Shown one piece after another: positions 34,060 to 53,660 of a stretch of DNA of 64,000 nucleotides. Location: contig NC_083386.1 of NCBI RefSeq assembly GCF_031755915.1, positions 12,896,001 through 12,960,000 of the forward strand, given 5' to 3'. The notes under the pieces are model-generated. The model had not been told where the DNA came from. It was given only the letters and a program-made list of their open reading frames with translations, and did not search any database. The position numbers were made by a program, and so were the translations under genes. This DNA comes from Ziziphus jujuba. Lineage: Eukaryota > Streptophyta > Magnoliopsida > Rosales > Rhamnaceae. How positions within the stretch are numbered: position 1 is the first letter of the stretch; each line of letters starts with the position of its first letter.

Positions 34060-35165
34060 TTAGTTGCGAGGATAGGATGCTGGTAATGTAATTGGAGAGG
34101 CACAAGAAGTGTGTTGAATTGAGAAAGGGCTTGGTGATCTCTGCTTTCGTCTAGGAAGAGTACCGCCAAATCTTCCCTGGTCATATAAAGATATAGATTC
34201 TGAAGCAGAGTGTTGTTTTGTGGCATCATCTATATACAGGAGATCATCAATCCTTGCCATTATATTGAAGGCTAAGCTTTCCATCACGTTAGAATAGCTT
34301 TCAAAGATTGACTGTCCCACATCCTACAGCAAAAAGGAAATTAGTGAATTTTAGTTTTGCTTTCCAGTTTTACCCTTTGTTAATATCATCAAATTATTCA
34401 TAGTTCCAGCTTCCATGTTTCTTGAAAGTTGAAATGCAATGAGAATAAATATTGTTGAATGAAGAGGGGTTTAGGAAAACTAATGCTTGAATATTTTCCC
34501 ATTATGTATAAATGACTGAAAATTTTCAAAGGCATAAATATACCTTGTTATACTGAATCTTGCTCATATCCAGAGTAGTTCGTGGGAGGCCAGGGAACCA
34601 CATCTTTAAATTTTGTAAGAGGGTCTCCAGCCGATATGCAAGAAGCTTATTTCTATGCATGTTACCGGCAAAACCTTTGACCTTTCCAATTCAGGATGAG
34701 TTTCGAGACTTTTCATCAACTGAAACGCCGTTTCAGGTTCTTTTGCCTTCAAATGTGCACAGAAGCCTCAATCCTGTTTAGTATTTCTAGGGTGGTGTAT
34801 TCTGATAAGAAGTCTAAATAATCAAGAAAACACTCTGGGGAGAACATATCTGCTGTCATGTAACGATATATGATCTCACCTAAACAATCTTTTCCACTCT
34901 GAGAAAGATTGGCAGGCAATGCCAACATATATTAGGATAATGAAGAGTAGAATGACCAGAAAATTGAAGAGAATAAAAAGTTGCAATAGCAATTTGATTT
35001 GATTCTCTAGTCATACATAGAATATATAATAAAGTTGGTTCACATACCTTAGGCAAGCTCTGTAAGTAAGCATTTGGGATTTCCATCTCAGCCAGAACGC
35101 TACTATTGATCGCCATGGTAGCCTTAAGGATCTGATTCATGCATTCTCTACATTGTTGCAATCTC
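34060..35165 (-). pseudogene. RopGEF (PRONE-domain) gene, three 3' exons, broken
   Basis: PRONE proteins activate plant Rho-type (ROP) GTPases at the plasma membrane. Three exons are visible on the minus strand: 35165-35048 ([19 protein letters not shown], then [15 protein letters not shown]), 34898-34544 ([18 protein letters not shown], then TLEILNRIEASVHI, then KMWFPGLPRTTLDMSKIQYNK) and 34323-34060 (DVGQSIFESYSNVMESLAFN, a Ser-rich tail with SPSPFSIQHT). Splice sites are plausible and phases agree. In the middle exon a TGA follows HI, and a frameshift and further stops follow before the frame recovers at LLAYRLE. The N-terminal half of PRONE is absent upstream. It is a dead 3' fragment, probably carried by the Mutator-like element ending at 36870. 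Confidence 0.85.
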
Positions 35166-36062
35166 TTTCTCCCATCATCATATTAGAGAACTGGCAGCAA
35201 TTAGAGAACCTCAAACACCACATGCTTTAAATGTTAATGGTCAATGGTAAACAGCAAACCACAGTTTTACCTAAACCTTACGTAGATCTAACAATTGCAC
35301 TAATGTGGAGCAATATTACAAATAGAATATATGAATGTTAATATGTATATGAGCAATTGCAGAACCTAATTTTATGTCAAATATGGTTTGACGAAAGAAC
35401 CATATGATAGAGAGTTAAATCATAGTTTGCAATGATTTGTTTGTCGTGCTTCACTTTTGGCAGAAAGCTTGATACCTAAATGTAGTCTTGGTGTATTCAA
35501 AGAATTAAGCCAATTCAGATTGATACTTATAGATGCAAATAGCACAAGTAACATAAAAGCATCAGTTAAAAATCCAAGATCATAGTCTGATTGTTTTAGA
35601 TCTTTATGTAGTTCATGGTTTATGGATTAGCATCATACTTTTGCGTAGTATCAATTGACCTTAAGATTTCAATTGCAGCAACCAGCTCTATGAACTCTAT
35701 ATTTGTGTCAATTAATCATTTATTTGCAGATTAAAAAGGCTTAATCATTTTTGTAGATAATTAATTTGGATTAGTTTAAAAAATACAAGAAAAAAATTAC
35801 CCAAAGCAAACAGAGCAAAAATAATTTTATATTTCTCTGATATTTCTTTAAAAGAGTTAAAACATTGTGACGTTTTTGAAATGATTGAATATCATAGTAT
35901 GATAGTTTCTCGCTCATGGTATTATTTGAAACCTTTAAGCATGATTTCCAAAGTAACGGTGTAGTAAAAGACCATTTTCGTTTCATTTCCAAAAACTGTA
36001 AGTTATCTTGTCGAAGGGACGACAAAGAACCAATCCACTCATACTGCCATGGGTGAAAGTCA
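35166..36062 (-). other. Spacer with an unrecognised minus-strand open frame
   Basis: Mostly AT-rich. The open frame 35771-36160 on the minus strand includes an exon-like, codon-balanced stretch (LDFHPWQYEWIGSLSSLRQ, then LEMKRKWSFTTPLLWKSC) that may be another captured exon. I do not recognise its family, and its C-terminal part looks non-coding. Confidence 0.35.
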
Positions 36063-36870
36063 AGTAATTTTCTCTTCATTTGTATAAGCAAAACCATTAT
36101 ATAATTTCCACCACACACATGCAACCCAATAAAACATGTCAACAAACAGTTCAAATGCATATGATTTTGGCCCCAAATAATAAAACCAGAAAAATAATAG
36201 GGTTCTAAAAATTCGATCAGTAATCAATAATTACTATATCCCATCTGTAAGATCCATTAACTTAATATTTTCAATGTACTAATCAATAAAATTTCTCATA
36301 CAGCTAATAAAAACAAAAATAAAAGCAGACCTAGAAGACCGAATAGAACAAAAAGTAAAAGAAGATTTGAGAGGCTGAATGATCATCGTCACCTGATGAG
36401 GTTGTTGTTTTAGTTGTCTTAGTGAGTCAATGAGAAGCAGAGAATGGGAAGAGTGGTGAGACGAAGAAGAAGAGGAGGAGGAGGAGGAGGAAGGAGCAAG
36501 GAGTTTTTTTGTAGGCCTGTTTACCGACTAAGTAGACACCGAAGGTGGCGACTTCGAGGCCAAGATAGGGAAGGCATGGCGGAGCTGATTACTAAGTTTC
36601 GGATGCTTCCTCCACTCGTCCATCCTCCTGAAGAACTCTCCAGTTGTCCCAAGCCACTTCGCCATTCTCCCTCAGTTTCTCTTCCTCTTCTTCTTCGTGC
36701 TCCATTCAGGGGAAAAATGGAATAGATTTTCGTCTTGATTTTTCTTTTTGATTTTTGAAAAAAGGTAATTTGGGAATATTTGAAAATAGGAGGATAAAAC
36801 AAAAAGATTGAGACGGGAGGGGTAGTTTACATTAAGGCCTTTCAAACAGGGGTATTGGGCCAAATTCTCC
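36063..36870 (-). mobile_element. Right arm of a Mutator-like element (first copy)
   Basis: About 800 bp are similar to 52762-53535, both ending in the same outward terminus (plus strand ..ggtattgggccaaattctcc at 36870). Read inward on the minus strand, the terminus is GGAGAATTTGGCCCAATACC, like the inverted repeats of the element 38851-53535. The matching left end for this copy was not found. The arm contains the complex I B12-like fragment. Confidence 0.7.
36393..36665 (-). pseudogene. Complex I B12 (NDUFB3)-like subunit, exon 1, frameshifted
   Basis: From ATG at 36665 the frame reads MAKWLGTTGEFFRRMDEWRK and HPKLSNQLRHA, as in the short plant B12-type accessory subunit of mitochondrial NADH dehydrogenase. 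After HAFP the frame runs into a TAG. In another frame the expected membrane segment continues (GLEVATFGVYLVGKQAYKK), so one small deletion broke it. A Ser/His-rich tail and a CAG|GTGACG donor end the exon at 36393. The family is about 70-75 residues with one membrane segment. The copy at 53090-53330 is broken differently, so neither derives from the other's lesion. Confidence 0.75.
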
Positions 36871-36899: not shown

Positions 36900-37510
36900 A
36901 TGCCAATGGCAGCCTCTAACCCTAACCCTAAAGACAACAAGGAGGATGGTTGGCGATTGAAGTTTCTAATAGATACACAAAGCAATAGAGTCTTCTATTC
37001 GTGGTAGCCAACAAGGACTTCGTTGATTTCTTATTCACACTTATCTCATTGCCAATAGCCACCGTAATCAAGCTTCTCCTAAGCAATGACATGGTGGGTT
37101 CTCTAGGTAATCTTTACCAAAGCATTGGAAAGTTCAATTCCAATTACCTTCAATCCAATATCAACAAAGAAACCTTCTTGAACCCCAAGTATTTGCTAAA
37201 GGGCATATCCTCAACTATCCCTCTGTTTTGTTCCAATTTCCCATCAAAACCCACAGCTCAAAAACTGTATCTTTGTCTGAGATTGGATTATGGAAGCCAT
37301 GAAATACCTGATTCCCATAAGTATGTGGCTATTCACCCAAAAGCTTGGTGTCCTAGGAGCAAAAACAAAATGTCTAGTGAGCTTACTTTTTTTGCTACGG
37401 ACAAAGGTTTGTCCTCCTTTGCCTTGTCCTCTGCCTCTGGTGAGGAAGGGTATGTGAAAGGTGCTACTTCTTGTCCTCTGTCTAGTGAGCTCTTAATTAA
37501 AGAAGTATAA
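36900..37510 (+). pseudogene. DUF674 family protein, N-terminal part, frameshifted
   Basis: Starts at ATG 36900 with a low-complexity leader, then WRLKFLIDTQSNRVFYS. After a frame change near 37000 it continues VANKDFVDFLFTLISLPI, DMVGSLGNLYQSI and, later, YVAIHPKAWCPRSKNKMSSE, ending in LLIKEV at 37510. These are DUF674 hallmarks (plant-specific, function unknown; members usually about 450-500 residues with two related halves). Only the first half is present. It lies outside both Mutator-like elements and so is the best candidate for original host sequence here. Confidence 0.8.
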
Positions 37511-38850
37511 ATATTCTTTACAGACATTAGTATTTTCATTTTCAATCTCAGTTTCTTTTTCCTATTGCTATGCATTCTACAATTCCACTTCTGTTTTTGG
37601 TTCTATAGAACATTTCACTGCCATTTATATTCCACTTATCTTGTATCGCATTCCTATCCATGTGCCTTCCTCTATTCAAAAAAAATCTACCATTGCTAGC
37701 AAAAAATAACCAATCAACCGCTGTGCCATTCAATATCCAAGTTAATCGCAAGCATATTTTTTCATTAGCAAACTCAATTGAGATTGACTATCATTTTGGA
37801 CACCATGACTTGCATAAAGAGAACCTTAGAACTTCTTCCAGTTGGGTCTTCAGATCAACTTGTTAAGACATATTTACTGAAATCCAATATTCATTAGGAC
37901 TTTTCAATATTTTGCTCACCAAATTCAAGTTGGCAAGATGCATTGGCTAAAGAATAATTATAGTCCTTTAATTAAGAGTATATTCGTATAAATTAGAGCA
38001 AATCAAATAAACTTCATTTAGGATCTGTTGCATATGTAATTGATAATGTAAATTACTAGTTTCCTACTCGAGGTGAGGTCTCTGCATCTATAGAAATTCT
38101 CTCTTCTATTATATATGTTCCAACACATACATATATATATATATATATATGGAAATTTATTTTTATTAAAATACCCAATTTATTTTCTTATTGCATTTTC
38201 CGATTCTACCACTGCCACTTTGTTGTGTGAAGTGTATTTTTTTTTTTTTTTTTCTTAATATATAGGGCTTCAGATTGCTAAAGGCATTTTTGACGACAAG
38301 GACTGCTCTAACTGATGTTTTTTGTTCTTACTGGTGTTTCTCTAAAGAAAGTATACAGTAGATTTGATCATCATAGCACAAAATGAAATCATTGTGGTTA
38401 GGCTTTTATGTGATCTCTTTATTTGTTTCTATGTGATGTTTTTGTTTTTTAACTACTAAAAGTGGTAGAGTTAGAACAGCCGGCCCCTAGCTTCCATGAC
38501 CATTGACTTTCACAGTCACCTATCCTACTTAGGCATTTTTAATCCTCTTCCTCCCTGTCCGAATGAAAACAAATAAAAATAATCAGCTTCAACACATAGT
38601 TCCCCATTTTAAGGTCAGAAAATTCAGAGAGAGTTTGGAAGAACTCTTTTGTCCGTACTTCTCAATATCAAACGAAATTGATACGTTACGTCGTCATTAC
38701 AACGACACAGACTCTAACAAAAATGAAAAATGCAAGTCAATTAAAATAAAGTGCAGAAAATGATTAAATGGCAAGAAAAACAAGTCTTTGGGCTTGAGGA
38801 AGGAAATGTTGCCTGGTCCACGTCTATGTCATGAAGAATAATTTTGACCA
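37511..38850. other. Intergenic, no recognised gene
   Basis: AT-rich sequence with a TA microsatellite (about 38132-38150) and a T-run (38238-38254). Short open frames (37660-37866, 38563-38763) have no recognisable domain. The last nine bases (38842-38850, ttttgacca) form the left target duplication of the next element. Confidence 0.4.
38842..38850. other. Left 9-bp target duplication of the Pack-MULE
   Basis: ttttgacca, paired with ttttgatta at 53536-53544. Confidence 0.6.
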
Positions 38851-38950
38851 GGGAAATTTGATCCAATGCCCTTATTTGAATGGTGTTAACAAAATATACC
38901 TACCTTGATTGAATCATTTTTGTTTTATCTTTTAATATTCATTACATCTT
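38851..38950 (+). repeat. Left terminal inverted repeat
   Basis: Imperfect inverted match to 53436-53535 and also to the terminus at 36870. Blocks in common: G-run, AATTTG, CCAAT, CCCTT, TTTTTGTTTTA. Confidence 0.7.
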
Positions 38951-39740
38951 TAAAAAAATTTTAAAAGATCTAGATGTTCTTTATTTTAGATTTAATATAA
39001 GGAAACATTTTGTGGCTCCTCCGATTAAACTTCTGAATTCTCATTCAAAACCAATGCTGAGATTAGAAAGAGGATCAAATTCAAGGACAATAAGTTTGAG
39101 TTCAATAAAAGCAATGCTCAGATCTTCTGGCTAATGCTTGACGATGCCCATATTCAATCCCGCCTTTATTTCTACAAGTATCGGAATGTTTTTACCTTCT
39201 CACTTATGCTTATTTCTTCTTTGGTGTTTCAGAAATACTTGAATGGTGGATCGGAAGAATCTGGGTCTTTAGCAAATGGCGGTTTTGTTCTGGTTCTACT
39301 AGGATTTGCGAGTGTTTTTAAGTTTTTAACGTTGCTCGCCAAGGTTGCTTTTGAAAAATTTGCGTCGAGGAGGTCGGAGAAGCATAGAGTGTTCTCTTTG
39401 GGGCTTTGGGAGCCATAGCTAGAAATATGGTTTGCTTCCTAATTAGTCCTTCGGTTCTGGATTTCAATTTTGGTCCAGTTGATGGTTTTTGTAGATCTTC
39501 AATTACTGTTTTAATGGGTTTCGTAGTTGGTTTTCTATTTATGCCTGCAACGAAGAGTGCCAGAGCGTTTTGGCTTGGAATTGATCAGTCCAGGTCTAAT
39601 TTGGCAATGATTTCATGCGGATGGTTTGCTAGACTAATTCTAAATTATTTGGTGATTCTATTCACATCAATTCTATGGATTAAACCTTTATCAGAAATGT
39701 TGGTCAACAAGAACATTGGTGATGGTAAAGATGTGCATTT

Positions 39741-40776
39741 TGTTGGGGTGAGAAGGTTATGACCAAGAGCAAGCTAGCTTGAAGTGTTAGCAACAAGCAA
39801 GCTTTTGGTGATGCTCTTGGGAATGGTTGTGTGTGAGTTGTGTTTTTAGGTTTTGGTTATGGTGTTTTCTGGTTTTTAGGGTTCCTAAAGTGTTCTAAGG
39901 TGTTGAAGAAGAGATAAGAAGAAGAGGAACACGTTGGCTTTTGAAAATAAGGCTTAGATGTGTAGCCATTTCATTCATTTTACAATATAAGCTTGAAATT
40001 ACAACTAGTTCACACATGCCAAGCATGTGAGCTTACAAAATGAGTAAAGTATTTGAAATTTAAAAAGTAAAATGGTCAACACCTAACTTTTCATACACAA
40101 AAGAGTCAAAAACCAGCTGCAACATGTCTATTCCAAATATAGTAAAAAGTGGCACATGGTTTGAACTAAGTTCCTATTGTTTAACTAGTTTGGGTAAACA
40201 ACCAAACTAGCTTCACCTACTTAGTTTCCCTTTGTATCTGCCTATGAAACTTGGTTTGAAGCATCCTTGGTCATCAATAAATATTGTTCCAAGAGCTAGG
40301 AATGTTCTGGAACCGGATCATGGGCCAAACAGCTCCAAAACTGACCCATACTCTGCATACTGGGCCCATCAGATACAGCAATCTGTTTGGAATAGAAAAT
40401 GGACTTTCCCATGTCATTTGGACCTGAAATTTGAACCATAGTCTTCTATATATGTCTGTAGACATCCCTCAAAATTTCAGCCCAAAAATCCATTTGAAAC
40501 CTGAGATATAAGATGAATAGTAGAACTATGTTGCTGGAAATTATGAATCCAGCACCATAGGCATTTCAAGCATAACATTCCTACTCTTTTGTGCATAATT
40601 TTGCCTATACTTTTGCACACATAACTTAGGCACAAAACATTATCAAAATATACCTTGCATAAATTAAAACATACAAAAAAAAATATAAACTGATAAAAGG
40701 AAAGGATTTGATACCAAGGTGTGCATGCTAGTCGGTGACATGCACCATCAAATGGCAAAATTGCCACACTTTAACA
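39741..40776 (-). repeat. Copia 3' LTR
   Basis: Near-identical to 44892-45926 (for example cacgttggc against catgttggc, ccatttgaaacc against ccatttgcaacc). It carries the last six bases of the polyprotein frame including the stop codon. Confidence 0.95.
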
Positions 40777-43700
40777 CTCCTCCTTGGCAATTTTGTATGA
40801 GACATTGAGAAGTCCTCTCAACATCTCAAATCTTTTCTTTCCCAATGGCTTGGTGAAGATATCCGCCAAGTTCTCCTCGGAAGTCACATACTCCAACTTC
40901 ACTTCACCACGTGCTTCAAATTCCCTTAAGGAATGATACTTGACCGGTATATGCTTGGTCCTCCCATGTTGGACTGGATTTTGTGCAATTGCTATTGCTG
41001 AAGTATTGTCACACAATATTACCGTGGATTCCTCTTGCTTCAAGCTCAAGTCCTCCAATAATTTCCTAAGCCAAACACCTTGATTAGCACAACTTGAGCA
41101 AGCAATATACTCGGCTTCCGCAGTGCTTTGTGCAACGGTTTGTTGCTTCTTGGAATTCCATGAGAAAGGACCATTTCCAAGAGTGTAAATGTAGCCCGAT
41201 GTGCTCTTGCTATCATCCAAAGAACCAGCCCAATCACTATCACTATAACCAAGCAAAGCTTCATTCATGCCATCCTTGTACCATATACCAAAATCACTAG
41301 TACCTTTCAAATACCTTAGGATTCTTTTTGCACAACTAAGATGATTTTGTGATGGACTATGCATAAATCTTGACAAAACAACCACACTAAACATGATATC
41401 CGGTCTAGTAGAGCATACATATAAAAAGCTACCAATTAAACTTCTATAGATGGAAGGATTTACCTTTGGAGAATCATCATCCTTCACCAATTTGGTGCCT
41501 TCATTCATAGGTGTGGCAACGCTATTACAATCTTCCATGTCAAACTTCTTGAGCAGCTCCTTCACATAGCTTTCTTGAGATATGAAGATGCCCTTGGATG
41601 ATTGGACAACTTCAATTCCAAGAAAGTATTTCATCTCTCCAAGGCTAGACATCTCAAAGTTCAATTCTAGCTCACCTTTGAAGTTGCTCACTTCTTTCTC
41701 ATTACCACCGGTCACTAGGAGGTCATCAACATAAAGAGACACCAACACCATGCAACCATGAGTCCTAATATATAATGTAGGCTCATTAGGACTCCTCCTA
41801 AATCCATGCTTTGTCAAAAAACCATCTATCTTGGCATACCATGCCCTAGGAGCTTGTTTAAGGCCATACAAGGCCTTGTGTAGCTTGTATACCTTCTCTT
41901 CACTTCCTTTCTTCACAAAACCTTCGGGTTGCACAACATAGACCTCCTCCTTCAATATTCCATTCAAGAAGGCTGACTTCACATCAAGGTGATATACTTT
42001 CCAAGACTTTTGTGCCGAAATTGCAAGAAGAAGTCTTATGGTTTCCATCCTTGCAACCGGTGCAAAAGTCTCTCCATAATCCACACCGGATTGTTGTGCA
42101 TATCCTTTGACAACAAGCCTTGCCTTGTGCTTATTTATGGACCCATTCGGATTGTACTTGGTCCTAAAGATCCACTTCACCCCAATAGCATTCTTTCCCT
42201 TCGGTTTTGTTACCAAGCTCCAAGTGTCATTCTTGTTTATCACATCGATTTCATCTTGCATGGCTTGTCTCCACTCTTTTCTTGCCATAGCCTCATAGAC
42301 ATTGATTGGATCACTCAATGCCACATTACACCTTTCATAAATCTCATTAAGAGGTCTTGTGCCTCTCACACCATCACCAATCTCCAAATCAGCCCCTATG
42401 GAGATTTCTAGCTCATTCTCATTATATTCATCATCATGGGCAGCACCTTCATCATTTCCTTGTTCCTCATCGTTATCATGAGCTTCAAGCCAATTGTCTT
42501 CATCCATACTAGCCAACTCCTCCTTACCACAAACCCATTTAGCTTCCTCATCAACTTTCACATCTCTACTTATCACAAGTTTCTTGGTTTCCAAGTTATA
42601 CACTCTATATCCCTTGGTCACATCACTATAGCCAATCAAGACACCAACTTGTGACCTTTCATCAAGCTTTCCTCTATTCTCTTGTGGTACTAGGATGTAA
42701 CAAATGCTTCCAAATACCCTTAGATGATCAAGAGAAGGCTTATATCCAAACCAAAGCTCAAATGGGGTTTTACTCCTCAAAGACTTGGAGTAAAGCCTAT
42801 TTTGGATGTAGATGGATGTATTAACTCCTTCGGCCCAAAACTTCTTTGGCAAGCCACTTTCAAACAACAAACATCTAGCCATCTCCATGATGGTACGGTT
42901 CTTCCTTTCACATACACCATTTTGTTGTGGTGTGTATGGTGTAGTGAATTGATGAACTATACCATGATCCTTACAAAGTTGTTTGAAAGCCTCACTTGTG
43001 TATTCCCCACCATTGTCCGTCCTTAACACCTTTATAGTGCAACCGGATTGATTTTGCACTAACTTCATAAATTCTACAAACTTCTCCAAAGCTTGTGATT
43101 TTCTTTCAAGGAAATACACCCAACACATTCTTGAGTAATCATCAATGAAAGTTATGAAATACTTGCTGCCATTTAAGGATGGAATACTCATAGGACCACA
43201 AATATCCGAATGTATAAGTCCTAACTTCTCCTTTGATCTCCAAGAACAAGATTGAAATGCTAGCCTAGTATGCTTTCCTTTTTGACACACTTCACACACA
43301 TGTTCTTGCTTCTCCACCAATGGCATGTCTCTAACAAGTTCATGTGTGCCTACCAATGACTTAAAGCTAGCATGGCCTAGTCGTTTATGCCAAAGTTGAG
43401 AGGTGTTCTCAACTTTGGTGTTCAATGCAACTGATGCACCATTTTCATCCATATTCAACCTAAAATTCTTGTTCTTCATTCCAACACACATTAATTCATT
43501 TCCATGTGGATCAACTATAGTGCATGTCATGTTTGAGAAGTGTAATGCATATTTGTTCTCAAGCATTTGACCTACACTAAGTAAGTTCTCACATAAAGAA
43601 GGTACATAGAGAACATCATGGATAGTTTTGATACCTTTGGTGGTGTGTATCACCACATCTCCTTTGCCTTTCACTTCCATCAAGGCTCCATTTCCAATTT

Positions 43701-44757
43701 TGACTTTGTTGTGGCTGCTCCTATCCAAGTTTGTGAACCACTCATGCTTGTGAGACATATGGTGTGTTGCTCCACTATCAATGATCCATCCTTCATCATT
43801 CTTGATGCTACTAAAACAAGTAGCAACAAACAACTCTTCGGATTCACTATCACTTGCATTATCTTTAGCAACATTTGCTTGTTGCTTATCTTTCTTGTTT
43901 GCCTTGCATACTCTCTCCACATGACCTTTTTGTTGGCATTTATGGCAAAATGCATCCGGCCTCCACCAACACCTTCTTGGATGATGACCTTTCTTCTTGC
44001 AATGGTGACAAGGTTCATAGGACTTCCTCTCGGGTTTGCTAGTTTCACCTTTCTCCTTTATGACCTTAAGCTTGTTCTTCTTTTGATTTTGTGTCTTTTG
44101 ATGTTGTTTAGACACAAATGCAGCCTCCATTGATTCTTCATGTCTAATCCTCCTCCTTTGCTCCGTAGCTTGCAAGGCATTCACCAACTCGGTCAAGGAA
44201 ATTTCATTTAGGTTCCTTGACTCCTCCAATGAAGATATCTTAGCTTCAAACCTCTCGGGCAAGGAGACCAACACCTTCTCCACAATCCTTTGGTCACTTA
44301 ATCTTTCACCTAGCACCCTAATTTGATTCACCACATTAAGAAGCCTTGTGGTGAACTCCTTAACCGTTTCTTTGTCTTTCATCTTGATAGTCTCAAACTC
44401 CCTCCTTAGGTTAAGGATTTGCATTTGCCTTGTCCTTGCACTCCCTTGGAACTCATCTTGAAGTTTGTCCCAAGCTTCTTTGGCACTCTCACATGCCATT
44501 ATCCTTGTGAAAATGGTATCACTAATACAAGAATGAATGGCGGTGAGAGCCTTGAAACCTTTAGCCAATTCCTCCTTATGGTGCTTGATTTGGTTGACCA
44601 TTGCCCCTTGTCTCAAAGGCTCGGGTTCTTGGGGATTTATGGTGACCTCCCAAAGACCATAAGCCTTCAAGTAGGCTTGCATCTTGATACTCCAAATGTT
44701 GTAGTTCTCCCCATTGAAGATAGGAGGAGAAGGAGTTGAAAAACTTGAAGAAGCCAT
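40771..44757 (-). CDS. Ty1/copia gag-pol polyprotein, intact, 1328 aa
   Basis: A single open frame from ATG 44757. Gag (UBN2 type) occupies about residues 1-230. Two CCHC knuckles follow, C250-C263 and C271-C284. The protease active site is DSGATHH with D327. The integrase zinc site is H457, H462, C488, C491, with catalytic D518, D581 (RTDNGGEY) and E617. Reverse transcriptase (RVT_2) spans about 845-1090, with D925 and YVDD at 1009-1012. RNase H has D1173 (SDSDWAG), E1214 (TAEAEY) and D1250, ending LADIFTKPLGKKRFEML. The order protease-integrase-RT-RNase H defines copia. Every catalytic residue I checked is present. The final codons are the purine tract itself, and the stop lies inside the 3' LTR. 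The product forms cytoplasmic virus-like particles in this family. Confidence 0.96.
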   Translation of the reverse strand: MASSSFSTPSPPIFNGENYNIWSIKMQAYLKAYGLWEVTINPQEPEPLRQGAMVNQIKHHKEELAKGFKALTAIHSCISDTIFTRIMACESAKEAWDKLQDEFQGSARTRQMQILNLRREFETIKMKDKETVKEFTTRLLNVVNQIRVLGERLSDQRIVEKVLVSLPERFEAKISSLEESRNLNEISLTELVNALQATEQRRRIRHEESMEAAFVSKQHQKTQNQKKNKLKVIKEKGETSKPERKSYEPCHHCKKKGHHPRRCWWRPDAFCHKCQQKGHVERVCKANKKDKQQANVAKDNASDSESEELFVATCFSSIKNDEGWIIDSGATHHMSHKHEWFTNLDRSSHNKVKIGNGALMEVKGKGDVVIHTTKGIKTIHDVLYVPSLCENLLSVGQMLENKYALHFSNMTCTIVDPHGNELMCVGMKNKNFRLNMDENGASVALNTKVENTSQLWHKRLGHASFKSLVGTHELVRDMPLVEKQEHVCEVCQKGKHTRLAFQSCSWRSKEKLGLIHSDICGPMSIPSLNGSKYFITFIDDYSRMCWVYFLERKSQALEKFVEFMKLVQNQSGCTIKVLRTDNGGEYTSEAFKQLCKDHGIVHQFTTPYTPQQNGVCERKNRTIMEMARCLLFESGLPKKFWAEGVNTSIYIQNRLYSKSLRSKTPFELWFGYKPSLDHLRVFGSICYILVPQENRGKLDERSQVGVLIGYSDVTKGYRVYNLETKKLVISRDVKVDEEAKWVCGKEELASMDEDNWLEAHDNDEEQGNDEGAAHDDEYNENELEISIGADLEIGDGVRGTRPLNEIYERCNVALSDPINVYEAMARKEWRQAMQDEIDVINKNDTWSLVTKPKGKNAIGVKWIFRTKYNPNGSINKHKARLVVKGYAQQSGVDYGETFAPVARMETIRLLLAISAQKSWKVYHLDVKSAFLNGILKEEVYVVQPEGFVKKGSEEKVYKLHKALYGLKQAPRAWYAKIDGFLTKHGFRRSPNEPTLYIRTHGCMVLVSLYVDDLLVTGGNEKEVSNFKGELELNFEMSSLGEMKYFLGIEVVQSSKGIFISQESYVKELLKKFDMEDCNSVATPMNEGTKLVKDDDSPKVNPSIYRSLIGSFLYVCSTRPDIMFSVVVLSRFMHSPSQNHLSCAKRILRYLKGTSDFGIWYKDGMNEALLGYSDSDWAGSLDDSKSTSGYIYTLGNGPFSWNSKKQQTVAQSTAEAEYIACSSCANQGVWLRKLLEDLSLKQEESTVILCDNTSAIAIAQNPVQHGRTKHIPVKYHSLREFEARGEVKLEYVTSEENLADIFTKPLGKKRFEMLRGLLNVSYKIAKEEC

Positions 44758-44877
44758 GTGAATGTTGCTTTCTAGTATGAAGGAATATGAAAATATATTT
44801 GTGCTTTCAAGTATCTCTTCACTCTCAAGGAACGAACCAGCCCAAAAACCTCACAAATCTCACAAAAATGTGCCTTG

Positions 44878-44888
44878 CTCTGATACAA
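44878..44888 (-). other. Copia primer-binding site
   Basis: On the minus strand TGTATCAGAGC lies a few bases after the LTR end CAACA. It is an initiator tRNA-Met site with one change. Confidence 0.75.
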
Positions 44889-44891
44889 CTT

Positions 44892-45926
44892 TGTTGGGGT
44901 GAGAAGGTTATGACCAAGAGCAAGCTAGCTTGAAGTGTTAGCAACAAGCAAGCTTTTGGTGATGCTCTTGGGAATGGTTGTGTGTGAGTTGTGTTTTTAG
45001 GTTTTGGTTATGGTGTTTTCTGGTTTTTAGGGTTCCTAAAGTGTTCTAAGGTGTTGAAGAAGAGATAAGAAGAAGAGGAACATGTTGGCTTTTGAAAATA
45101 AGGCTTAGATGTGTAGCCATTTCATTCATTTTACAATATAAGCTTGAAATTACAACTAGTTCACACATGCCAAGCATGTGAGCTTACAAAATGAGTAAAG
45201 TATTTGAAATTTAAAAAGTAAAATGGTCAACACCTAACTTTTCATACACAAAAGAGTCAAAAACCAGCTGCAACATGTCTATTCCAAATATAGTAAAAAG
45301 TGGCACATGGTTTGAACTAAGTTCCTATTGTTTAACTAGTTTGGGTAAACAACCAAACTAGCTTCACCTACTTAGTTTCCCTTTGTATCTGCCTATGAAA
45401 CTTGGTTTGAAGCATCCTTGGTCATCAATAAATATTGTTCCAAGAGCTAGGAATGTTCTGGAACCGGATCATGGGCCAAACAGCTCCAAAACTGACCCAT
45501 ACTCTGCATACTGGGCCCATCAGATACAGCAATCTGTTTGGAATAGAAAATGGACTTTCCCATGTCATTTGGACCTGAAATTTGAACCATAGTCTTCTAT
45601 ATATGTCTGTAGACATCCCTCAAAATTTCAGCCCAAAAATCCATTTGCAACCTGAGATATAAGATGAATAGTAGAACTATGTTGCTGGAAATTATGAATC
45701 CAGCACCATAGGCATTTCAAGCATAACATTCCTACTCTTTTGTGCATAATTTTGCCTATACTTTTGCATACATAACTTAGGCACAAAACATTATCAAAAT
45801 ATACCTTGCATAAATTAAAACATACAAAAAAAATATAAAGTCATAAAAGGAAAGGATTTGATACCAAGGTGTGCATGCTAGTCGGTGACATGCACCATCA
45901 AATGGCAAAATTGCCACACTTTAACA
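44892..45926 (-). repeat. Copia 5' LTR
   Basis: Partner of 39741-40776, followed by the target duplication CATTT at 45927-45931. The transcription start should lie within it; no TATA box was assigned with confidence. Confidence 0.95.
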
Positions 45927-46212
45927 CATTTGGTCAACAAAGTTGGACATTTAGAGAGATTGCTTGGAAGTGTAGGAATTTTGCCTTCCAATTTTGCTAA
46001 ATTTAGGATTTGGTGCTTATTGCTTTTGGGTTTCTTGTAACTTGTTGCTTTGCGACCGAACTTGCAAATGTACTGGAATAAAGCTCTTTTGTCTTGGTAC
46101 CAGAGGTTGCATGCTAGCAAAGTCCCTAATTTGGAATTTAGCAGGGCAAAAGTTTTCCTTCACAATCATTTCTTATGTCTCATAGTTTTGCAGTTTCTTG
46201 AACCCCCAGTTT

Positions 46213-48060
46213 TGATAACCATAGGGGTTTCGGTAATTACCGATGAAAGCTACGGTAATTTTTCCAACAACTACAAATTGATTACCGTAGGTTTCATCTG
46301 TAATTAACGAAGGCCCTATGGTAATCAAATTTTTGTGCCAATTTGAGAACTTTTGCAAAAAATTTTGGGGTTTTTTCTCCTTAGAATTATTGAAGAATGT
46401 ATATTTTGCATGTTGTTGCATTTAACACACATTAGGGGATTGTGGGGGCCAAAAAATTGGTAAAATATGATAACCATAGAGGTTTTGGTAATTACCAATG
46501 AAACCTACGGTAATTTTTCCAACAACTACAAATTGATTACCGTAGGTTTCATCTGTAATTAACAAAGGCCCTATGGTAATCAAAGTTTTGTGCCAATTTG
46601 AGAACTTTTGCAAAAATTTTGGGGTTTTTTCTCCTTAGAATTATTGAAGAATGTATATTTTGCATGTCGTTGCATTTAACACACATTAGGGGATTGTGGG
46701 GGCCAAACAATTGGTAAAATATGATAACCATAGAGGTTTTGGTAATTACCGATGAAACCTACGGTAATTTTTCCAACAACTACAAATTGATTACCGTAGG
46801 TTTCATCTGTAATTAACAAAGGCCCTATGGTAATCAAATTTTTGTGCCAATTTGAGAACTTTTGCAAAAATTTTGGGGTTTTTTCTCCTTAGAATTATTG
46901 AAGAATGTATATTTTGCATGTTGTTGCATTTAACACACATTAGGGGATTGTGGGGGCCAAAAAATTGGTAAAATATGATAACCATAGAGGTTTTGGTAAT
47001 TACCGATGAAACCTACGGTAATTTTTCCAACAACTACAAATTGATTACCATAGGTTTCATCGGTAATTACCGAAGGCCCTACGACAATCAAATTTTGTGC
47101 CAATTTAAGAACTTTTTCAGAACTTTTGGGGCTTTTTTTCTTTAAGATCATTGAAGAATGTATATTTTTCATATTGTTGCATTTAACACATATTAGGGAA
47201 CTTGTGGGGGCTAAAAAATTGGTAAAATATGATTACCATAGGAGTTTCGGTAATTACCGATGCAACCTACGTAATTTTTCAAGCAAGGACAAATTGATTA
47301 CCTTAGGTTTCATCGGTAATTACCGAAGGCCCTACGGTAATCAAATTTTTGTGCCAATTTGAGAACTTTTTCAGAACTTTTGGGGTTTTTTCTCTTTAGG
47401 ATTATTGAAGAATATATATTTGGCATATTTTTGCATTTAACACATATTAGGGGACTTGTGGGGGCCAAAAAATTGGTAAAATGTGATAACCATAGGAATT
47501 TCGGTAATTACCGATGAAACCTACGCTAATTTTCCCAGCAACTACAAATTGATTACCATAGGTTTCCAAGGTAATTCCCGAAGGCCCTACGGTGATCAAA
47601 TTTTTGTGCCAATTTGAGAATTTTTTCAGAACTTTTAGGGTTTTTTCTCCTTAGGATCATTGAAAAATGTATATTTTGCATGTTGATGTATTTAACACAC
47701 ATTAGGGAACTTATGGGGGCAAAAAAATTGGTAAAATGTGATAGCCATAGGGGTTTCAATAATTACCGATGATACCTACGGTAATTTTTCAAGCAAAGAC
47801 AAATTGATTACTGTAGGTTTCATCGGTAATTATCGTAGACCTTACGGTAATCAAATTTTTGTGCTAATTTGAGAACTTTTTCATAACTTTTGGAGTTTTT
47901 TCTCTTTAGGATCATTGAAGAATATATATTTTGTATGTTGTTGCATTTAACACACATTAGGGGACTTGTAAAGGCCAAAAAATTCGTAAAATATGATTAC
48001 CATAGGAGTTTTGGTAATTATCGATGAAACCTACGGTAATTTTTCCAGCAACTAGAAATT
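46213..48060. repeat. Tandem repeat A, eight units of 254-255 bp
   Basis: Units start 'tgat(a/t)accatag' at 46213, 46468, 46722, 46976, 47230, 47484, 47739 and 47994, the last partial. Spacing is 254-255 bp each time. Each unit holds a palindromic pair built from 'ggtaattaccgatgaaacctacggtaat' and its inverted form around 'gattaccgtaggtttcatcggtaattacc', then an AT/T-rich stretch and 'acacattaggggattgtgggggcc'. Units 2-4 are the most alike and units 5-8 more diverged. The minus-strand open frames here repeat with the unit and are not genes. Confidence 0.95.
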
Positions 48061-48476
48061 GAATGTTTTCACTTGTTAATGTCATTTTTTCTCTTACTTT
48101 GTCAACAGTTATCATTAATAATGTGTATTTGCAACAAAAATAAACTTCCCACCACAATTTCATAAACATATTAATATCGTATTATCATGATTATCAAATG
48201 TCATCTCTAAATAACATACAAAATACTTAAAACACAATACCATTTTACCAAAATAATACCACAAATGACTTTTTTAACAAAACAATACCACAATACTATT
48301 GACTTTTTTACCAAATCACACATCCAACAATTGGGCTACTAATTACATTGCTACAACTCCATTGAAAAAAAAAAAAAAAATCCCTGCTCCACCTCTGCTT
48401 TCCTTTCCTCTATGAAAAAGCATCTCTCACCTCTCCTCTTATAAGCATATGAAAGACTTAGGAAAAATTGCAGTTG
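48061..48476. other. AT-rich spacer after tandem repeat A
   Basis: Contains an A-run (about 48366-48381). No gene seen. Confidence 0.4.
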
Positions 48477-48557
48477 ATTCAGCTTCCACTTCTAGGAGAT
48501 CAAATGGAGCTCGACTAGTTTCTGCTAGATGAGAAATAAACATCAGTAAATTATAGG
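48477..48557 (-). pseudogene. nad1: Mitochondrial nad1 fragment (nuclear copy)
   Basis: The minus-strand translation contains LLMFISHLAETSRAPFDLLE followed by VEAE, matching a conserved loop of the mitochondrial complex I subunit ND1 (LAETNRAPFDLPEAEAE type). Flanking sequence on both sides loses similarity, so only about 80-100 bp are present. It is organelle DNA in the nucleus, probably taken up with, or inserted into, the Pack-MULE. Confidence 0.75.
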
Positions 48558-49788
48558 AAATTGTCACATTCAAAGCCATAGATGAACTCTCATCAATCAC
48601 CCAATGGCCTAGAAAAGGGCCACATCTAAATAGAACTGAATACAAATGCTAAAAAGTATTTATTTTGCCAGACCATATCTCAGCATCAAACTTTGAGTAG
48701 GTTCATCCTTAGATGGATGATCCTTGCTTGGTGTAGATTCGGATGGATAAACTTAAGCACAATTTTATGCCATTTTTCTTCTTTTTGTTCCTATTCAATC
48801 ACTTTCCTACTTTCTCCTAAATTGTTTGGCTGGTTTCATAATTTTATTTAAGCACCTACAACGCAAGAAGCTTTAGAAAATAAAACATTCTTCATTAAGG
48901 CAAAACTTGCGCTAGTAACTTTTATGCTCTGCAGTTGCAAAGGCTGTTCAATTTTTCAATTTCTTTTTCTTCTCTGAAAACCTGAAATTTCTGATCCACT
49001 CCAATCACGATCACTTATTTTGTCAGTGAACTTTTTTTCCCCCTATTTTAATCAAAAGAAGGCAACATGTTGAAGATAATAGGTGTCTGTCATCAAAGTT
49101 GTTTGCTTTGTTGATTGCAATTTTGCCTAAGACAAAACCCTTTTCTAGCATGCTGCTAAGAGCTAACCACATCCTCTGCCTTTCAAAATGTAAAGTAATC
49201 AACTCTAGGAGGCAGAGTTTTATTATCAATTTCCTACATATACTAGTGAGGTTAACAGGTTGGCAACATTAACATGTTAAGTGTGAAAGATTGAAAATTT
49301 TTATTAGAGAATCTTACATGAAGTTATTGTGAGAGACATATAGTTCAAAGTGAAACTTGTTTGCATAAACCAACTAGTAAAAGCATGCAAATAAATACAT
49401 TGTTAAAGATGCCACTTAATAGGATGGCCGCTCATTGTAATATAAAAAATCCTGGTGTTGCCTATATATACTCCATAAGATGCCATTAGAATTGGTTATT
49501 TGAGCTTTGTTTGAACTGGAATAAATATTTCAGATTACACTTTGAACAACAAAAATACCAAAACTGGCACGATAGAAGCAAGGAATTGTTGAGGATATCA
49601 ACAATAGGTTTGGGATTCTAGAAGGATGCAGGTAATCTTCCAAAACTAGGACTGTAAGAAATATCTGCAAAGGAAATCTAGAAGTTTCTCCTTAACAAAT
49701 ATTCATACAAGTAGCAAAATAGAAGCAAAAATTAGCTTCATAATATAAGAACTTTAATAAACTTAAAGAAGAATAATTTAGGCCTTAC
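48558..49788. other. Spacer without recognised gene
   Basis: AT-rich sequence. Minus-strand open frame 49023-49229 has no known domain. It could be intron sequence of a captured gene. Confidence 0.35.
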
Positions 49789-49880
49789 CATGTCAGGGTC
49801 CAATGTATCAAATGCATGAAGTCCATATCTGTCTTCAGGTACAAGAATAGTTGTTTTTGGATCTAAAGACTCAGTTTTAC
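49789..49880 (-). pseudogene. Captured exon, family not recognised
   Basis: Read on the minus strand between an ACAG acceptor and a GTAAGG donor, it gives KTESLDPKTTILVPEDRYGL and HAFDTLDPDM. It is clean coding sequence without stops. It is not the expected next exon of the C2 gene upstream, so it may come from another gene. Confidence 0.45.
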
Positions 49881-50234
49881 CTGTTTCATGTATGAAGTAT
49901 TCTATTGAAAATCATAAATTTCATAAAAAAAAAAAAATGCTTTAAATTAAAATGTAAAACATAAAATATAAAATATTCAAGTGGTCTGACAATTCAGAGC
50001 ATTATTAGAAGAACAAAATAACACAATAAAAAAGAGAAAATGTTACAAAAAATTATGTCAATTTTCATATCCTAGCAAATATTTAAGCAATTTCTTCATG
50101 CCATTGACTAATACATAAAGCATAATGGAATTAACAAAGCATATCAATGACTAAAAGCAGCTAAATTTCACTAATACATAAACATATGGAATTATCTTGT
50201 GGAATACATCTAGAAAAAAGCATATAGTTGTTAC

Positions 50235-50361
50235 CATAGAAGAAATAACAAAGCTTTCGAGCGTCCACAATTGTTACTGATAACTCTCCAACAAAATCCT
50301 TGTTCCCTTCTTGCATATCCCCTGGTTTTAAATCATTTGGAACTAGGCCAACTGCCTTTCC
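50235..50361 (-). pseudogene. C2-domain lipid-binding protein exon (NTMC2T5-like)
   Basis: Between a TTTTTAG acceptor and a GTAACA donor on the minus strand the exon encodes KAVGLVPNDLKPGDMQEGNK and DFVGELSVTIVDARKLCYFF. This is the start of a C2 domain (first beta strands) as in plant synaptotagmin-like NTMC2T5 / tricalbin-type proteins, which tether membranes through lipids. No SMP domain or further C2 exon was found nearby, so only this exon was captured. Confidence 0.65.
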
Positions 50362-50406
50362 CTAAAAATGCATACATCTATTTGATCATTGCATGTGTGC
50401 AATCCA

Positions 50407-50520
50407 TATGGCCCATGTCGGTAATTTTTTCAAAGATTAACATAGTTGCTGAAAAATACCTACAGTATACTTCTGCATTTTCAATAATTCTGTTGGTGAT
50501 TTTTTATGTTAATTTTTTTT
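50407..50520. repeat. Detached copy of repeat B
   Basis: Reads 'cccatgtcggtaattttttcaaagattaacat' and 'tctgttggtgattttttatgttaattttt', matching the unit core at 33190-33300. It lies directly beside the C2 exon inside the Pack-MULE. Confidence 0.65.
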
Positions 50521-50949
50521 CATGTAACTATTGAACATAATATTAATGCATGAAGGATGTTAAATTTTTTTATATAATGTAACCATGTAACTATGATAAT
50601 CTTGGGGTCCATTGATGCATAATGGATGAGGAATATGTATATGTTTGTGTATGTATATGGAAATATGGATATATATATATATATCCATATATATATGGAC
50701 TAAAAAATAATTGCATGGTACAAGACAAAGTATATGCTTCATAAGAAAACGGCTATTGAACCTGAATTCATCCACCATATCAACAAATAAAAGAATTTTT
50801 CAAAATCCATGAAAGTAACTCAATACCATTGGAAGCTTTGCCTTTGAAAAAAAGAAAAAAAAATGTCAAACTAGATGCTCAAAACAGCTTTCATGGAATG
50901 AAGTGGAAATTTATGGCTTTAATTCTCTTTTGTGAACAATAAATAGCCT
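50521..50949. other. AT-rich spacer
   Basis: Contains an imperfect palindrome of 'tatatccatatatatatgga' type near 50670-50698. No gene seen. Confidence 0.4.
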
Positions 50950-51340
50950 TGTGGAAGACTTGACTCACAACCAATTCAATACTAACATTTCTCAACTGCA
51001 TTGAACCACCAATGGTTGGCTTGCATATCTCTTCAATGGAAGAATCAATTCCACCCACCATGCATCCTTTAAAAGGTGCAACATGACTCATCCGCATGAA
51101 AGTTCTATTCCATGGACACAAATCTTTTAAATTTCTCATTTCTTGATGTTGGCACATCACCATCTGCTAGAACTCAAGCAAGTTCACACGATCTAACTGA
51201 GCATTGATTTGCATTCTTCTCAGATTTTGCTCAAGCTTCATCAGCACTTCCTGCTCTTGTAATAGTTGTGTTGTAGCAGTGACAAATCTTTTCATTTTCT
51301 TCACTTTCCTCTCCATTTTCTTCAATCTATATTCCTAGCC
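50950..51340 (-). pseudogene. PSI-like (DUF3475/DUF668) protein fragment, broken
   Basis: The minus-strand frame reads MERKVKKMKRFVTATTQLLQ, then LEQNLRRMQINAQLDRVNLL and EF, then a TAG (near 51168). It resumes HQEMRNLKDLCPWNRT and CKPTIGGSMQLRNVS. The charged helical segment ending in a LWNRT-type motif is typical of PSI / DUF668 proteins, plant growth regulators linked to phytosulfokine response. The beginning and the DUF668 core are missing. It is a captured, disabled fragment in the same orientation as the other minus-strand pieces. Confidence 0.65.
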
Positions 51341-52454
51341 AAACCATTGAAAACCATTTTGAATAGGATCATTACAAAATTGTTCAAGACGGTGATAAAC
51401 AGGATTGGCACACGTCCTATGTATGCACAATCAAACAAAGAAACCAAAAGATATTACGTGTTACTGTTTACATTTAGATGGAAATTTCAATTTTTAAATA
51501 AAGAGAAGCACTAAAACAAAAGTTAACATCACACTGATAGAACATATTCACTAAATGAATCAAAGAAACCAAGTTGGCCAGGAAGAGTTTCCAATAACCT
51601 ACTAAATGGGTGGCTAATATTGATTTAGATTTCCCATTTTCAAAAGAAAAAGTCAAAGAGTAGTTTTAAATTCTCCAAGATTCTTCATATGCTATCACCC
51701 TTAATGCAAGTACCTTAAACATTTTTTAGCATAAGAAGAATTACATGTATCATGCAGTCAGATTAATCCAATTAAGCAACCAATATCAACCAGGAAGACC
51801 AGATTGTTTATACCTTTATGTACCTTCCAAATTTAGTTCCTTGATATTTTCTAATAGTGGAACAACAGGCTCCATGACAATATAGATAGCAACCTTGTCG
51901 TATTACCACAAAAAGTTTTAGTCTCCATACTATAAAGGAATGATAAAATATTTGGATGTTTGACCTAAAAAGAACAAACGTGACTTTTTTATACTAGTAG
52001 GTATCGTAGAAAAATTCCTTTACAGAAGGCTAGTAACAGAAGGATAAAGTAGCTAGACAGGGAAACAAAACATGTATTAAAGCTTAGAAAAATAGGCATA
52101 CTATCAAAAAAAATCGATGGACTCTTAAAAAACAACCATGTTGAGTTAATGCTTGATAAAACTAAAAATTTAAACATTTTGTTACAAAAATATTACACTT
52201 AAATTTTATCAGATTATTGGATTTCAAATTTCAGGGATGTGAGAATCTTTCATATCAATTTCCTCTTTGATTTTGATAGGTGTATGTGACAAGAAAATCC
52301 ATAATGCATCAATCCGCTAATATCTAAATTCAAAAAAGTAGCAACCAAAATATTGAAAATTGCAAAGAGAAGAATATTTAAACCAATCCAAGAAACCAAA
52401 GAGAATAAGAACTTTCTCAAGAAAAATACTAACCACAACAAAGAGTAAAACAGA
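51341..52454. other. Spacer without recognised gene
   Basis: AT-rich sequence. No clear coding signal on either strand, possibly intronic sequence of captured genes. Confidence 0.35.
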
Positions 52455-52564
52455 TGAGAACTTATTGTTCTGAGGCGCTTTACACCATTACGACCAGCAG
52501 CTAAATGTCCATCTTGGGCATTACTTCCAGAAAGAGAAAATATACATACAACAGATCCATCATC
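52455..52564 (-). pseudogene. Captured exon, family not recognised
   Basis: After a TTTTAG acceptor the minus strand encodes DDGSVVCIFSLSGSNAQDGH and LAAGRNGVKRLRTISSHL. There are no stops, and base composition is richer in GC than the surroundings. No donor was fixed and no family recognised. Confidence 0.4.
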
Positions 52565-53089
52565 CTAAAATACCAATTAAAAGTATATCAACATATCATG
52601 TATCTATATATGATAAAATTTTCTTAGATTAGAGAAACTGAAGATTGAAATTCATAATTGACGTATAGGAAATAGCCAATAATAAGATCTTAGGAAGATC
52701 TGAGCATATAGACACATCCAAGACTTTAACAGAACAGGTTATGGAATATCTTCACTACTAAAATTTTCTCTTCATTTGTATAAGCAAAAGCATTATATAA
52801 TTTCCACCACACACACGTAACCCAATAAAACATATCAATAAACAGTTAAAATGCATATGATTTTGGCCCCAAATAATAAAACCCAAAAATAATAGCATTC
52901 TAAAAACAAGTTCAGTAATTAATAATTACTATATCCCATCTATAAGATCCATTAACTTAATATTTTCAATTGTAATAATCAACAAAATTTCTAGAACAAC
53001 TAATAAAAACAAAAATAAAAGCAGACCCAAAAAACTGAATGGAACAAAAAGTAAAAGAAGATTTAAGGGGGTTGAATGATCATCGTCAC

Positions 53090-53330
53090 CTGATGAGGTT
53101 ATTGTTTTAGTTGTCTCAGTGAGTTAGTGAGAAGCAGAGGAATGGGAAGAGTGGTGAGAAGAAGAAGAAGCAGAAGAAGAAGAGAAAGGAGGAGTTTGTT
53201 GTAGACCTACTCGCCGACTTCGAGGCCAAGACCAAGAAGGGCATGGCAGAGCTGATTGCTAAGCCTTGGATGCTTCCTCCACTCGCTCCTCCTCCTGAAG
53301 AACTCCAATTGTCCCAAAACGCTTCGCCAT
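53090..53330 (-). pseudogene. Complex I B12 (NDUFB3)-like subunit, exon 1, broken
   Basis: ATG at 53330. After MAKRFGTIG a two-base deletion shifts the frame. The expected residues then follow in another frame: FFRRRSEWRKHPRLSNQL, then LGLGLEVGE, a TAG and VYNKLL. About 27-30 bp of the membrane segment are missing compared with 36393-36665. The Ser-rich tail and the CAG|GTGACG donor (at 53090) are conserved. Confidence 0.75.
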
Positions 53331-53435
53331 TCTCTCTCACTTTCTCTTCCTCTTCTTTTCCGTGCTCTGTTTAGGGGAAAAATGGTGTAACCTTACATCT
53401 TCATTCTTCCTTTTCACATTTGAAAAAGGTAATGT

Positions 53436-53535
53436 GGGGATATTTGAAAATAGAAGGGTAAAACAAAAAGGGTTGGAAACGTGTGGGTAATTTTCATTAA
53501 AGCCTTTAAAACAAGGGTATTGGGCCAAATTCCCC
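53436..53535 (-). repeat. Right terminal inverted repeat
   Basis: Inverted partner of 38851-38950, followed by ttttgatta (53536-53544). Confidence 0.7.
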
Positions 53536-53660
53536 TTTTGATTATGTGTATCTAAAAAGCCCAAGTTTACAATCTTTTATATATCATTTGCTGAGTATGC
53601 AGGACAATACATTAACGATTCTATCAAAGAATCTTTTATTAGAAAATTATTCGTAAATTA

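What the first reader, a model, noticed from the sequence alone, without database searches (positions are those of the whole stretch)
38851..53535. Pack-MULE with fragments of at least five unrelated genes
Inverted ends of about 100 bp and flanking 9-mers ttttgacca/ttttgatta define a Mutator-like element without transposase. Its cargo, mostly in minus orientation, includes TMEM161, nad1, a C2 exon, a PSI/DUF668 piece, two unidentified exons and a complex I B12-like exon. Capturing this many sources, including organelle DNA, in one element is unusual.
Basis: partly seen in the sequence, partly recalled or inferred. Interest (0 to 1): 0.75.

Follow-up and report, generated by a model that had tools for sequence, protein, structure and literature searches.

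The report
Jujube transposon carrying seven gene scraps
A decayed mobile DNA element, probably from the jujube genome, has collected pieces of several unrelated nuclear genes and probably one mitochondrial gene, and parts of the same patchwork appear in other predicted jujube genes, so it is a rich example of a known kind of gene-shuffling transposon.

Summary
The ends of 38851-53535 carry about 91 bp of imperfect inverted repeat (score 49, best of 1000 shuffles 36), flanked by TTTTGACCA/TTTTGATTA (7 of 9), within limits published for Mutator-like elements. The right end with its NDUFB3 (B12) piece recurs at 36066-36870; that homology stops at the terminal base of both. No transposase domain was found. 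Cargo: TMEM161, nad1, a tricalbin-3-like C2 piece, an SCY1-like kinase exon and NDUFB3, supported by searches; a DUF668-like piece (name recalled); and an unidentified exon (KTESLD). Two further predicted jujube proteins hold the DUF668+C2 fusion; one continues into KTESLD and the nad1-derived stretch.

Corrections: 6186 bp of the span is a recent Ty1-copia retrotransposon (TSD CATTT) nested in TMEM161, and 1850 bp is a 254-bp tandem array; the Pack-MULE proper is about 8.5 kb. A second half-element (RopGEF + NDUFB3) lies beside it. One exon is now named (SCY1).

A CACTA element with five gene fragments is already published (PMC1947982), so this is a new member of a known kind. The genome search did not complete, so copies and donors were seen only through proteins.

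The parts
38842..38850 (+). Left copy of the 9-bp target site duplication, TTTTGACCA
   Evidence: Sequence
38851..38941 (+). Left terminal inverted repeat (GGGAAATTTGATCCAATGCCC...)
   Evidence: Local alignment to the right end, score 49, 0 of 1000 shuffles as high; core scan
39029..39740 (+). TMEM161 fragment, first part; one frame change at about 39388-39418; the stretch before about 39490 is assigned by recall
   Evidence: Pfam PF10268, E 5.4e-8, residues 152-332 of the joined reading; frames
39741..45926 (-). Nested Ty1-copia retrotransposon: LTRs 39741-40776 and 44892-45926 (99.4% identical), open 1359-codon frame 40771-44850 on the minus strand, TSD CATTT; later insertion, not cargo
45927..46210 (+). 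TMEM161 fragment, second part, one premature stop (starts with the second CATTT of the copia TSD)
   Evidence: Pfam on joined reading; frames
46213..48062 (+). Tandem array, 254 bp x 7.3, palindromic motifs; origin unknown
   Evidence: repeats
48463..48549 (-). Probable mitochondrial nad1 fragment, match to plant Nad1 residues 188-216; a 3' splice site lies inside it (exon from 48521)
   Evidence: PDB phmmer E about 1e-4; Pfam NADHdh E 1.7e-4, below its cut-off; same stretch in P0024
49789..49880 (-). Unidentified exon (KTESLDPKTTILVPEDRYGLHAFDTLDPDM) with GT/AG borders
   Evidence: 93.5% over 31 aa to P0024; splice junctions
50235..50361 (-). C2-domain protein piece (tricalbin-3-like), cut in mid-exon at its 5' side, followed by intron-like sequence
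   Evidence: 58 hits; in 56 of 58 the exon continues upstream in frame as FQ/FE, the other two are jujube chimeras
50987..51325 (-). PSI/DUF668-like piece (family name recalled) with one premature stop
   Evidence: P0082, P0025 and P0024 of jujube
52436..52564 (-). SCY1-like inactive protein kinase exon plus the start of the following intron
   Evidence: P0001 91% over 43 aa; P0018 and P0022 named scy1, P0020 and P0021 protein kinase
52762..53400 (-). NDUFB3 (complex I B12) piece with flanking DNA, shared with the neighbouring half-element
   Evidence: PDB E 5.9e-11; 52762-53535 is 82.7% identical over 811 aligned columns to 36066-36870
53445..53535 (-). Right terminal inverted repeat
53536..53544 (+). 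Right copy of the target site duplication, TTTTGATTA
36066..36870 (-). Second right end of the same family with its own NDUFB3 piece; homology ends exactly at its terminal base
34216..35182 (-). RopGEF (PRONE) exon fragments beside the second right end; profile positions before 165 not found
   Evidence: Pfam PF03759

Best explanation
This is a non-autonomous, chimeric Mutator-like element (Pack-MULE), probably on chromosome 3 of Ziziphus jujuba or a very close relative. Shown: inverted ends, the 9-bp flank pair, truncated pieces of four nuclear genes named by searches (TMEM161, tricalbin-3-like, SCY1-like, NDUFB3), a probable mitochondrial nad1 piece, two more pieces whose genes are recalled (DUF668-like) or unknown (KTESLD), a recurring right end, related chimeric proteins predicted elsewhere in jujube, and a later copia insertion. 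Inferred: a transposase supplied in trans moved it; the pieces were added stepwise, probably by gap repair with template switching; and transcription from the right end could join the pieces through the splice sites they carry.
For: Terminal repeat and flank statistics. A second copy of the right end, whose homology stops at the terminal base while flanks and inner cargo differ. No transposase domain in six frames of the element outside the copia insert. Cargo identities. Jujube chimeras: P0025 (locus tag Zijuj03) equals a two-exon reading of the window at all 131 residues; P0082 (Zijuj10) has the DUF668+C2 fusion; P0024 adds KTESLD and the nad1-derived stretch; P0001 (Zijuj02) carries the SCY1 exon beside a different piece. 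In 56 of 58 hits the C2 exon continues upstream in frame, the other two being P0024 and P0025, so the piece is cut in mid-exon; it runs into NNYMLFSRC, close to NNYMPLSRC in P0026, which points to capture of genomic DNA. The copia element is nested inside the TMEM161 piece and its LTRs are 99.4% identical, so it came later and recently.
Against: The two ends match each other only moderately beyond about the first 40 bases, and the TSD has 2 mismatches of 9. No complete sister element with both ends was seen, because the genome search did not complete. It is not shown that the other jujube copies of the chimera lie between the same ends. The second right end has no recognisable left mate. No transposase source was seen. 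The nad1 match is short. The DUF668 name is recalled.
Confidence: 0.82

Rival explanations
1. Composite: two different elements of one MULE family, one with the left end and TMEM161, one with the right end and the minus-strand cargo, brought together by deletion or by the tandem array.
For: The 254-bp array separates TMEM161 from the rest. The right end occurs without most of this cargo at 36870. TMEM161 is the only plus-strand piece.
Against: The 9-bp flanks match at 7 of 9, random rate 0.003, as expected for one insertion.
Confidence: 0.12
2. The minus-strand block of exons was assembled by another capturing transposon, a Helitron or a CACTA element, and only later enclosed by MULE ends.
For: Same-orientation multi-gene cargo is also a Helitron habit (recalled). 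A five-gene CACTA element is published (PMC1947982, passages). The arrays have palindromic motifs that I associate with CACTA elements (recalled).
Against: No Helitron-like 3' end by a strict hairpin+CTRR rule on either strand outside the copia insert (0 and 0; 30 shuffles, mean 0.03, so the rule has little power). Among five exact CACTA patterns the only hit between 30 and 55 kb is a bare CACTACTA at 52753 without a partner; degenerate ends would be missed.
Confidence: 0.05
3. Ordinary decayed local genes that happen to lie between two chance inverted repeats.
For: Several pieces are degenerate, with stops and a frame change.
Against: Seven pieces, five of them under 400 bp, are packed together. 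The same fusion is encoded by other predicted jujube genes. The right end recurs with an exact border.
Confidence: 0.01

Closest known systems
Pack-MULEs (rice, maize, Arabidopsis, tomato)
   Same: MULE-type inverted ends, 9-bp TSD, no transposase found, truncated host gene pieces, chimeras from several loci
   Different: More sources than a typical element as I recall them, large size, a probable mitochondrial piece; donors not located
Tgm-Express1 (soybean CACTA element, PMC1947982)
   Same: Five unrelated host gene fragments with introns in one element; fragments used as spliced exons
   Different: CACTA superfamily ends; this element has MULE-type ends and seven pieces, and its splicing is seen only in gene models
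Multi-gene Helitrons of maize
   Same: Several gene pieces mostly in one orientation (recalled)
   Different: Helitrons lack inverted ends and TSDs (recalled); no Helitron-like end was found here, with a weak test

Membership tests
Pack-MULE | Terminal inverted repeats of at least 50 bp (filter used for multiple-TIR MULEs in PMC3310237) | tested here: met
   91 bp aligned, score 49 against at most 36 in 1000 shuffles; 6 mismatches in first 30
Pack-MULE | 9-11 bp TSD with at most 2 mismatches (PMC3310237; 2 TSD mismatches also in PMC8903248) | tested here: met
   7 of 9, exactly at the published limit
Pack-MULE | No MULE transposase | tested here: met
   No transposase family at E up to 0.01 in six read-through frames of the 8.5 kb outside the copia insert; the one hit listed, CTD12 at E 0.0029, is below its cut-off. 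These scans also missed TMEM161, so small remnants could escape
Pack-MULE | Contains fragments of host protein-coding genes | tested here: met
Pack-MULE | Other genomic elements with homologous ends | tested here: met
   A second right end at 36870, without a left mate; whole genome not searched
Pack-MULE | Donor loci located and shown to be outside the element | not testable with these tools
   Genome search unanswered (10 calls); only homologous proteins seen
Helitron | Ends TC...CTRR with a 3' hairpin, no inverted ends (definition recalled) | tested here: not met
   The element begins GGGAAA and ends TTCCCC with inverted ends. An inner Helitron is not excluded: 0 hairpin hits, weak rule
CACTA (Pack-CACTA) | CACTA ends with 3-bp TSD (definition recalled) | tested here: not met
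   The element's ends are GGG-type with a 9-bp flank pair; no paired CACTA ends among five exact patterns between 30 and 55 kb

The most novel reading that the evidence does not exclude
A jujube MULE lineage works as an exon-collecting platform. A fixed right-end module (inverted repeat plus the NDUFB3 piece) is kept while downstream cargo is exchanged: SCY1, DUF668, C2, KTESLD and nad1 in one element, RopGEF in its neighbour. All of that cargo lies in the sense direction from that end, so it can be spliced into chimeric transcripts, one of which uses a splice acceptor inside a former mitochondrial gene.
Probability: 0.3. Interest if true: 0.6.

Novelty: new member of a known kind. Interest (0 to 1): 0.45.

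Why it matters
It suggests that a Mutator-like element in a dicot tree genome can gather seven pieces, most or all from different genes and probably including organelle DNA, and that parts of the same chimera are filed as genes elsewhere in the genome (P0024, P0025, P0082). That matters for gene annotation. It also bears on the open question of how these elements acquire DNA: the shared right end with different inner cargo gives breakpoints that can be compared directly.

Tried and rejected
Left mate for the second right end (36870): scanning for its predicted TSD ACTACGAAA and for the terminal core gave no convincing site. It may be lost or diverged.

Names for the KTESLD exon and the DUF668-like piece: Pfam gave nothing useful, and PDB gave nothing for the DUF668-like piece or the C2 piece; KTESLD was not sent to PDB. 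The frame at 35774-36223 had no Pfam family, and adding part of it to the query brought no hit of its own that I identified.

Helitron and CACTA readings: see rivals. GC bias as in grass Pack-MULEs: not seen; pieces are 31-38% GC against 34% for the window.

My first report draft said that three of the five C2 hits without the motif were P0027, P0076 and P0079; the recount shows P0047, P0057 and P0074, all of which have FLDFQ, so 56 of 58 continue upstream.

Literature, seen as listings with starts of abstracts only: 20 of 22,256 papers listed; 30 of 90; 12 of 37; 2 of 2; 12 of 128; 8 of 11; 12 of 46. No listed title or abstract start described a mitochondrial fragment in a Pack-MULE, or a Pack-MULE survey of jujube. 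Papers that hold the relevant words in their text, such as PMC4929541 and PMC5240378, were not opened, so this is not proof of absence. Opened: PMC8903248 (passages and section 10), PMC3310237, PMC1947982, PMC4858842 and PMC13317346 (passages only).
Full report
What was checked. The finding says that 38851-53535 is a Mutator-like element without transposase, carrying pieces of at least five unrelated genes. I tested the ends, the flanks, the contents, the neighbourhood and the relatives.

Ends. 38851-38941 aligns with the reverse complement of 53445-53535, score 49; the best of 1000 dinucleotide shuffles scored 36. The first 30 bases differ at 6 positions. The flanking 9-mers TTTTGACCA and TTTTGATTA agree at 7 of 9; two random 9-mers of this window do so at a rate of 0.003. 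One published filter, used for MULEs with multiple TIRs, asks for TIRs of at least 50 bp, external ends no more than 20 kb apart and a 9-11 bp TSD with at most 2 mismatches (PMC3310237, passages). Another search was run with 7 TIR and 2 TSD mismatches (PMC8903248, passages). This element, 14,685 bp with its insert, falls inside those limits, at the edge for the TSD.

A second copy of the end. In the whole window, both strands, the terminal core is matched at 21 of 21 in three places: 38851, 53535 and 36870; the only other hits at 16 or more are two at 16 of 21 that are opposite-strand echoes of the right ends. The stretch 36066-36870 matches 52762-53535 at 82.7% over 811 aligned columns, and the match stops at the outermost base of both ends. 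Both copies hold the NDUFB3 piece. Further in, they differ: here the next piece is the SCY1 exon, there RopGEF exons. A left mate of the second end was not found. The 1980 bp between the second end and the left end of the element hold a DUF674 remnant (Pfam E 7.6e-13 for 36989-37507, profile positions 276-414 of 445). An ATG at 36900, 29 bp beyond the end, opens another frame; that it was the start of this gene is inference.

Nested retrotransposon. 39741-45926 is a Ty1-copia element on the minus strand with LTRs 99.4% identical, an open frame of 1359 codons and TSD CATTT. It splits the TMEM161 piece. Without it the element is about 8.5 kb, of which 1850 bp is a 254-bp tandem array.

Cargo, from the left end. 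TMEM161, plus strand, 39029-39740 and 45927-46210: Pfam E 5.4e-8 when the parts are read together, the match covering residues 152-332; the earlier residues are assigned by recall, and of the four frames scanned alone two were unmatched and two stayed below the cut-off. Then, all on the minus strand: nad1, 29 residues matching positions 188-216 of plant mitochondrial Nad1, E about 1e-4, Pfam E 1.7e-4 below the cut-off; the KTESLD exon; the C2 piece; the DUF668-like piece (name recalled); the SCY1-like kinase exon, 91% identical over 43 residues to a jujube protein, with relatives named scy1 in coconut and sweet potato among 23 hits; and NDUFB3, E 6e-11. So four nuclear genes and a probable mitochondrial one are named by searches; a fifth nuclear source rests on recall, and KTESLD may be a sixth or may belong to one of the others. 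Read-through frames of the element outside the copia insert show no transposase domain. Those scans also missed TMEM161, so a small transposase remnant is not excluded.

Relatives. Three jujube proteins carry the fusion of the DUF668-like piece and the C2 piece. P0025 (FEM48_Zijuj03G0076400) equals a two-exon reading of the window at all 131 residues, which suggests that the window is this locus or a near-identical one. P0082 (FEM48_Zijuj10G0026000) lies on another chromosome by its locus tag and has a glutamine where the window has a stop. P0024 (LOC132800255, isoform X2) continues into the KTESLD exon and then into the nad1-derived stretch, in the order of the window; splicing the window at the matching GT/AG sites gives 142 residues identical to the 153 of P0024, with a stop in the window copy inside the nad1-derived part. 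I cannot tell whether P0024 and P0082 are one locus in two genotypes. P0001 (FEM48_Zijuj02G0057500) has the SCY1 exon beside a different piece. These are predicted proteins; no transcript evidence was seen.

Nature of the pieces. The query returned 58 proteins. In 53 of 58 the motif [VIL]LDF[QHE] precedes the C2 stretch in the same frame; three of the other five have FLDFQ, so 56 of 58 continue upstream, and the remaining two are the jujube chimeras P0024 and P0025. So the window piece starts in mid-exon. The AG just before it, which acts as splice acceptor in the models, may come from the donor's own codon (inference). After the piece the window reads into NNYMLFSRC, close to NNYMPLSRC in P0026; P0028 and P0029 also continue with NNY. 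Intron sequence therefore seems to have come along, which means copying from genomic DNA and not from mRNA.

How it most likely works. A transposase supplied by another element acts on the inverted ends (inference from family knowledge). The pieces were added in several steps, most simply by template switching during gap repair (inference; models in which MULE excision sites invade ectopic sequence are mentioned in PMC4858842, passages). The shared right end with different inner cargo fits stepwise exchange. The six minus-strand pieces run in the sense direction from the right end, TMEM161 in the sense direction from the left end; promoters in MULE inverted repeats are described for other Pack-MULEs (PMC3310237, passages). 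The element is damaged; the copia insertion is later and recent. How old the element is cannot be read from the 82.7% between the two right ends, which dates the split of the two copies and not this insertion.

Comparison and novelty. Chimeric Pack-MULEs are known, and Tgm-Express1, a CACTA element, holds five unrelated gene fragments that are spliced into transcripts (PMC1947982, abstract and passages). Element width correlates with the number of loci captured (PMC8903248, section 10). Seven pieces, one probably mitochondrial, in a MULE whose chimera recurs in other predicted genes is a strong example, but of a known kind.

Limits. The genome search was unanswered ten times, so genomic copies, donors and empty sites were not seen at DNA level. 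The nad1 match is short. The species call rests on one identical predicted protein and its relatives.

Noticed in passing
36989-37507: DUF674 remnant (Pfam E 7.6e-13) between the second MULE right end and the left end of the element; an ATG in another frame lies 29 bp beyond the end at 36870.
   Followed up: partly
34216-36870: Second half-element: RopGEF (PRONE) exon fragments plus NDUFB3 and a right end, without a recognisable left end.
   Followed up: partly
46213-48062, 32217-33492 and 50401-50519: A 254-bp tandem array and a second array of roughly 300-bp units with similar palindromic GGTAATTACCG-type motifs; one unit-like stretch of the second (73% identity) sits just before the C2 piece.
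   Followed up: partly
P0001 (FEM48_Zijuj02G0057500): Jujube protein whose source name begins 'Glycoside hydr' (cut in the listing), fused to the same SCY1 exon: possibly another capture chimera annotated as a gene.
   Followed up: no
58216-58632: DDE_Tnp_4 transposase fragment (Pfam E 1.7e-14; PIF/Harbinger type recalled). The frames at 57285-57965 and 58808-58999 gave no Pfam family.
   Followed up: partly
16627-19740 and 59549-62743: Long repeat pair, 83-86% identical, same orientation; not identified.
   Followed up: no
63335-63649: Frame with a ribonuclease H1 N-terminal (Cauli_VI) domain, Pfam E 4.4e-13.
   Followed up: no
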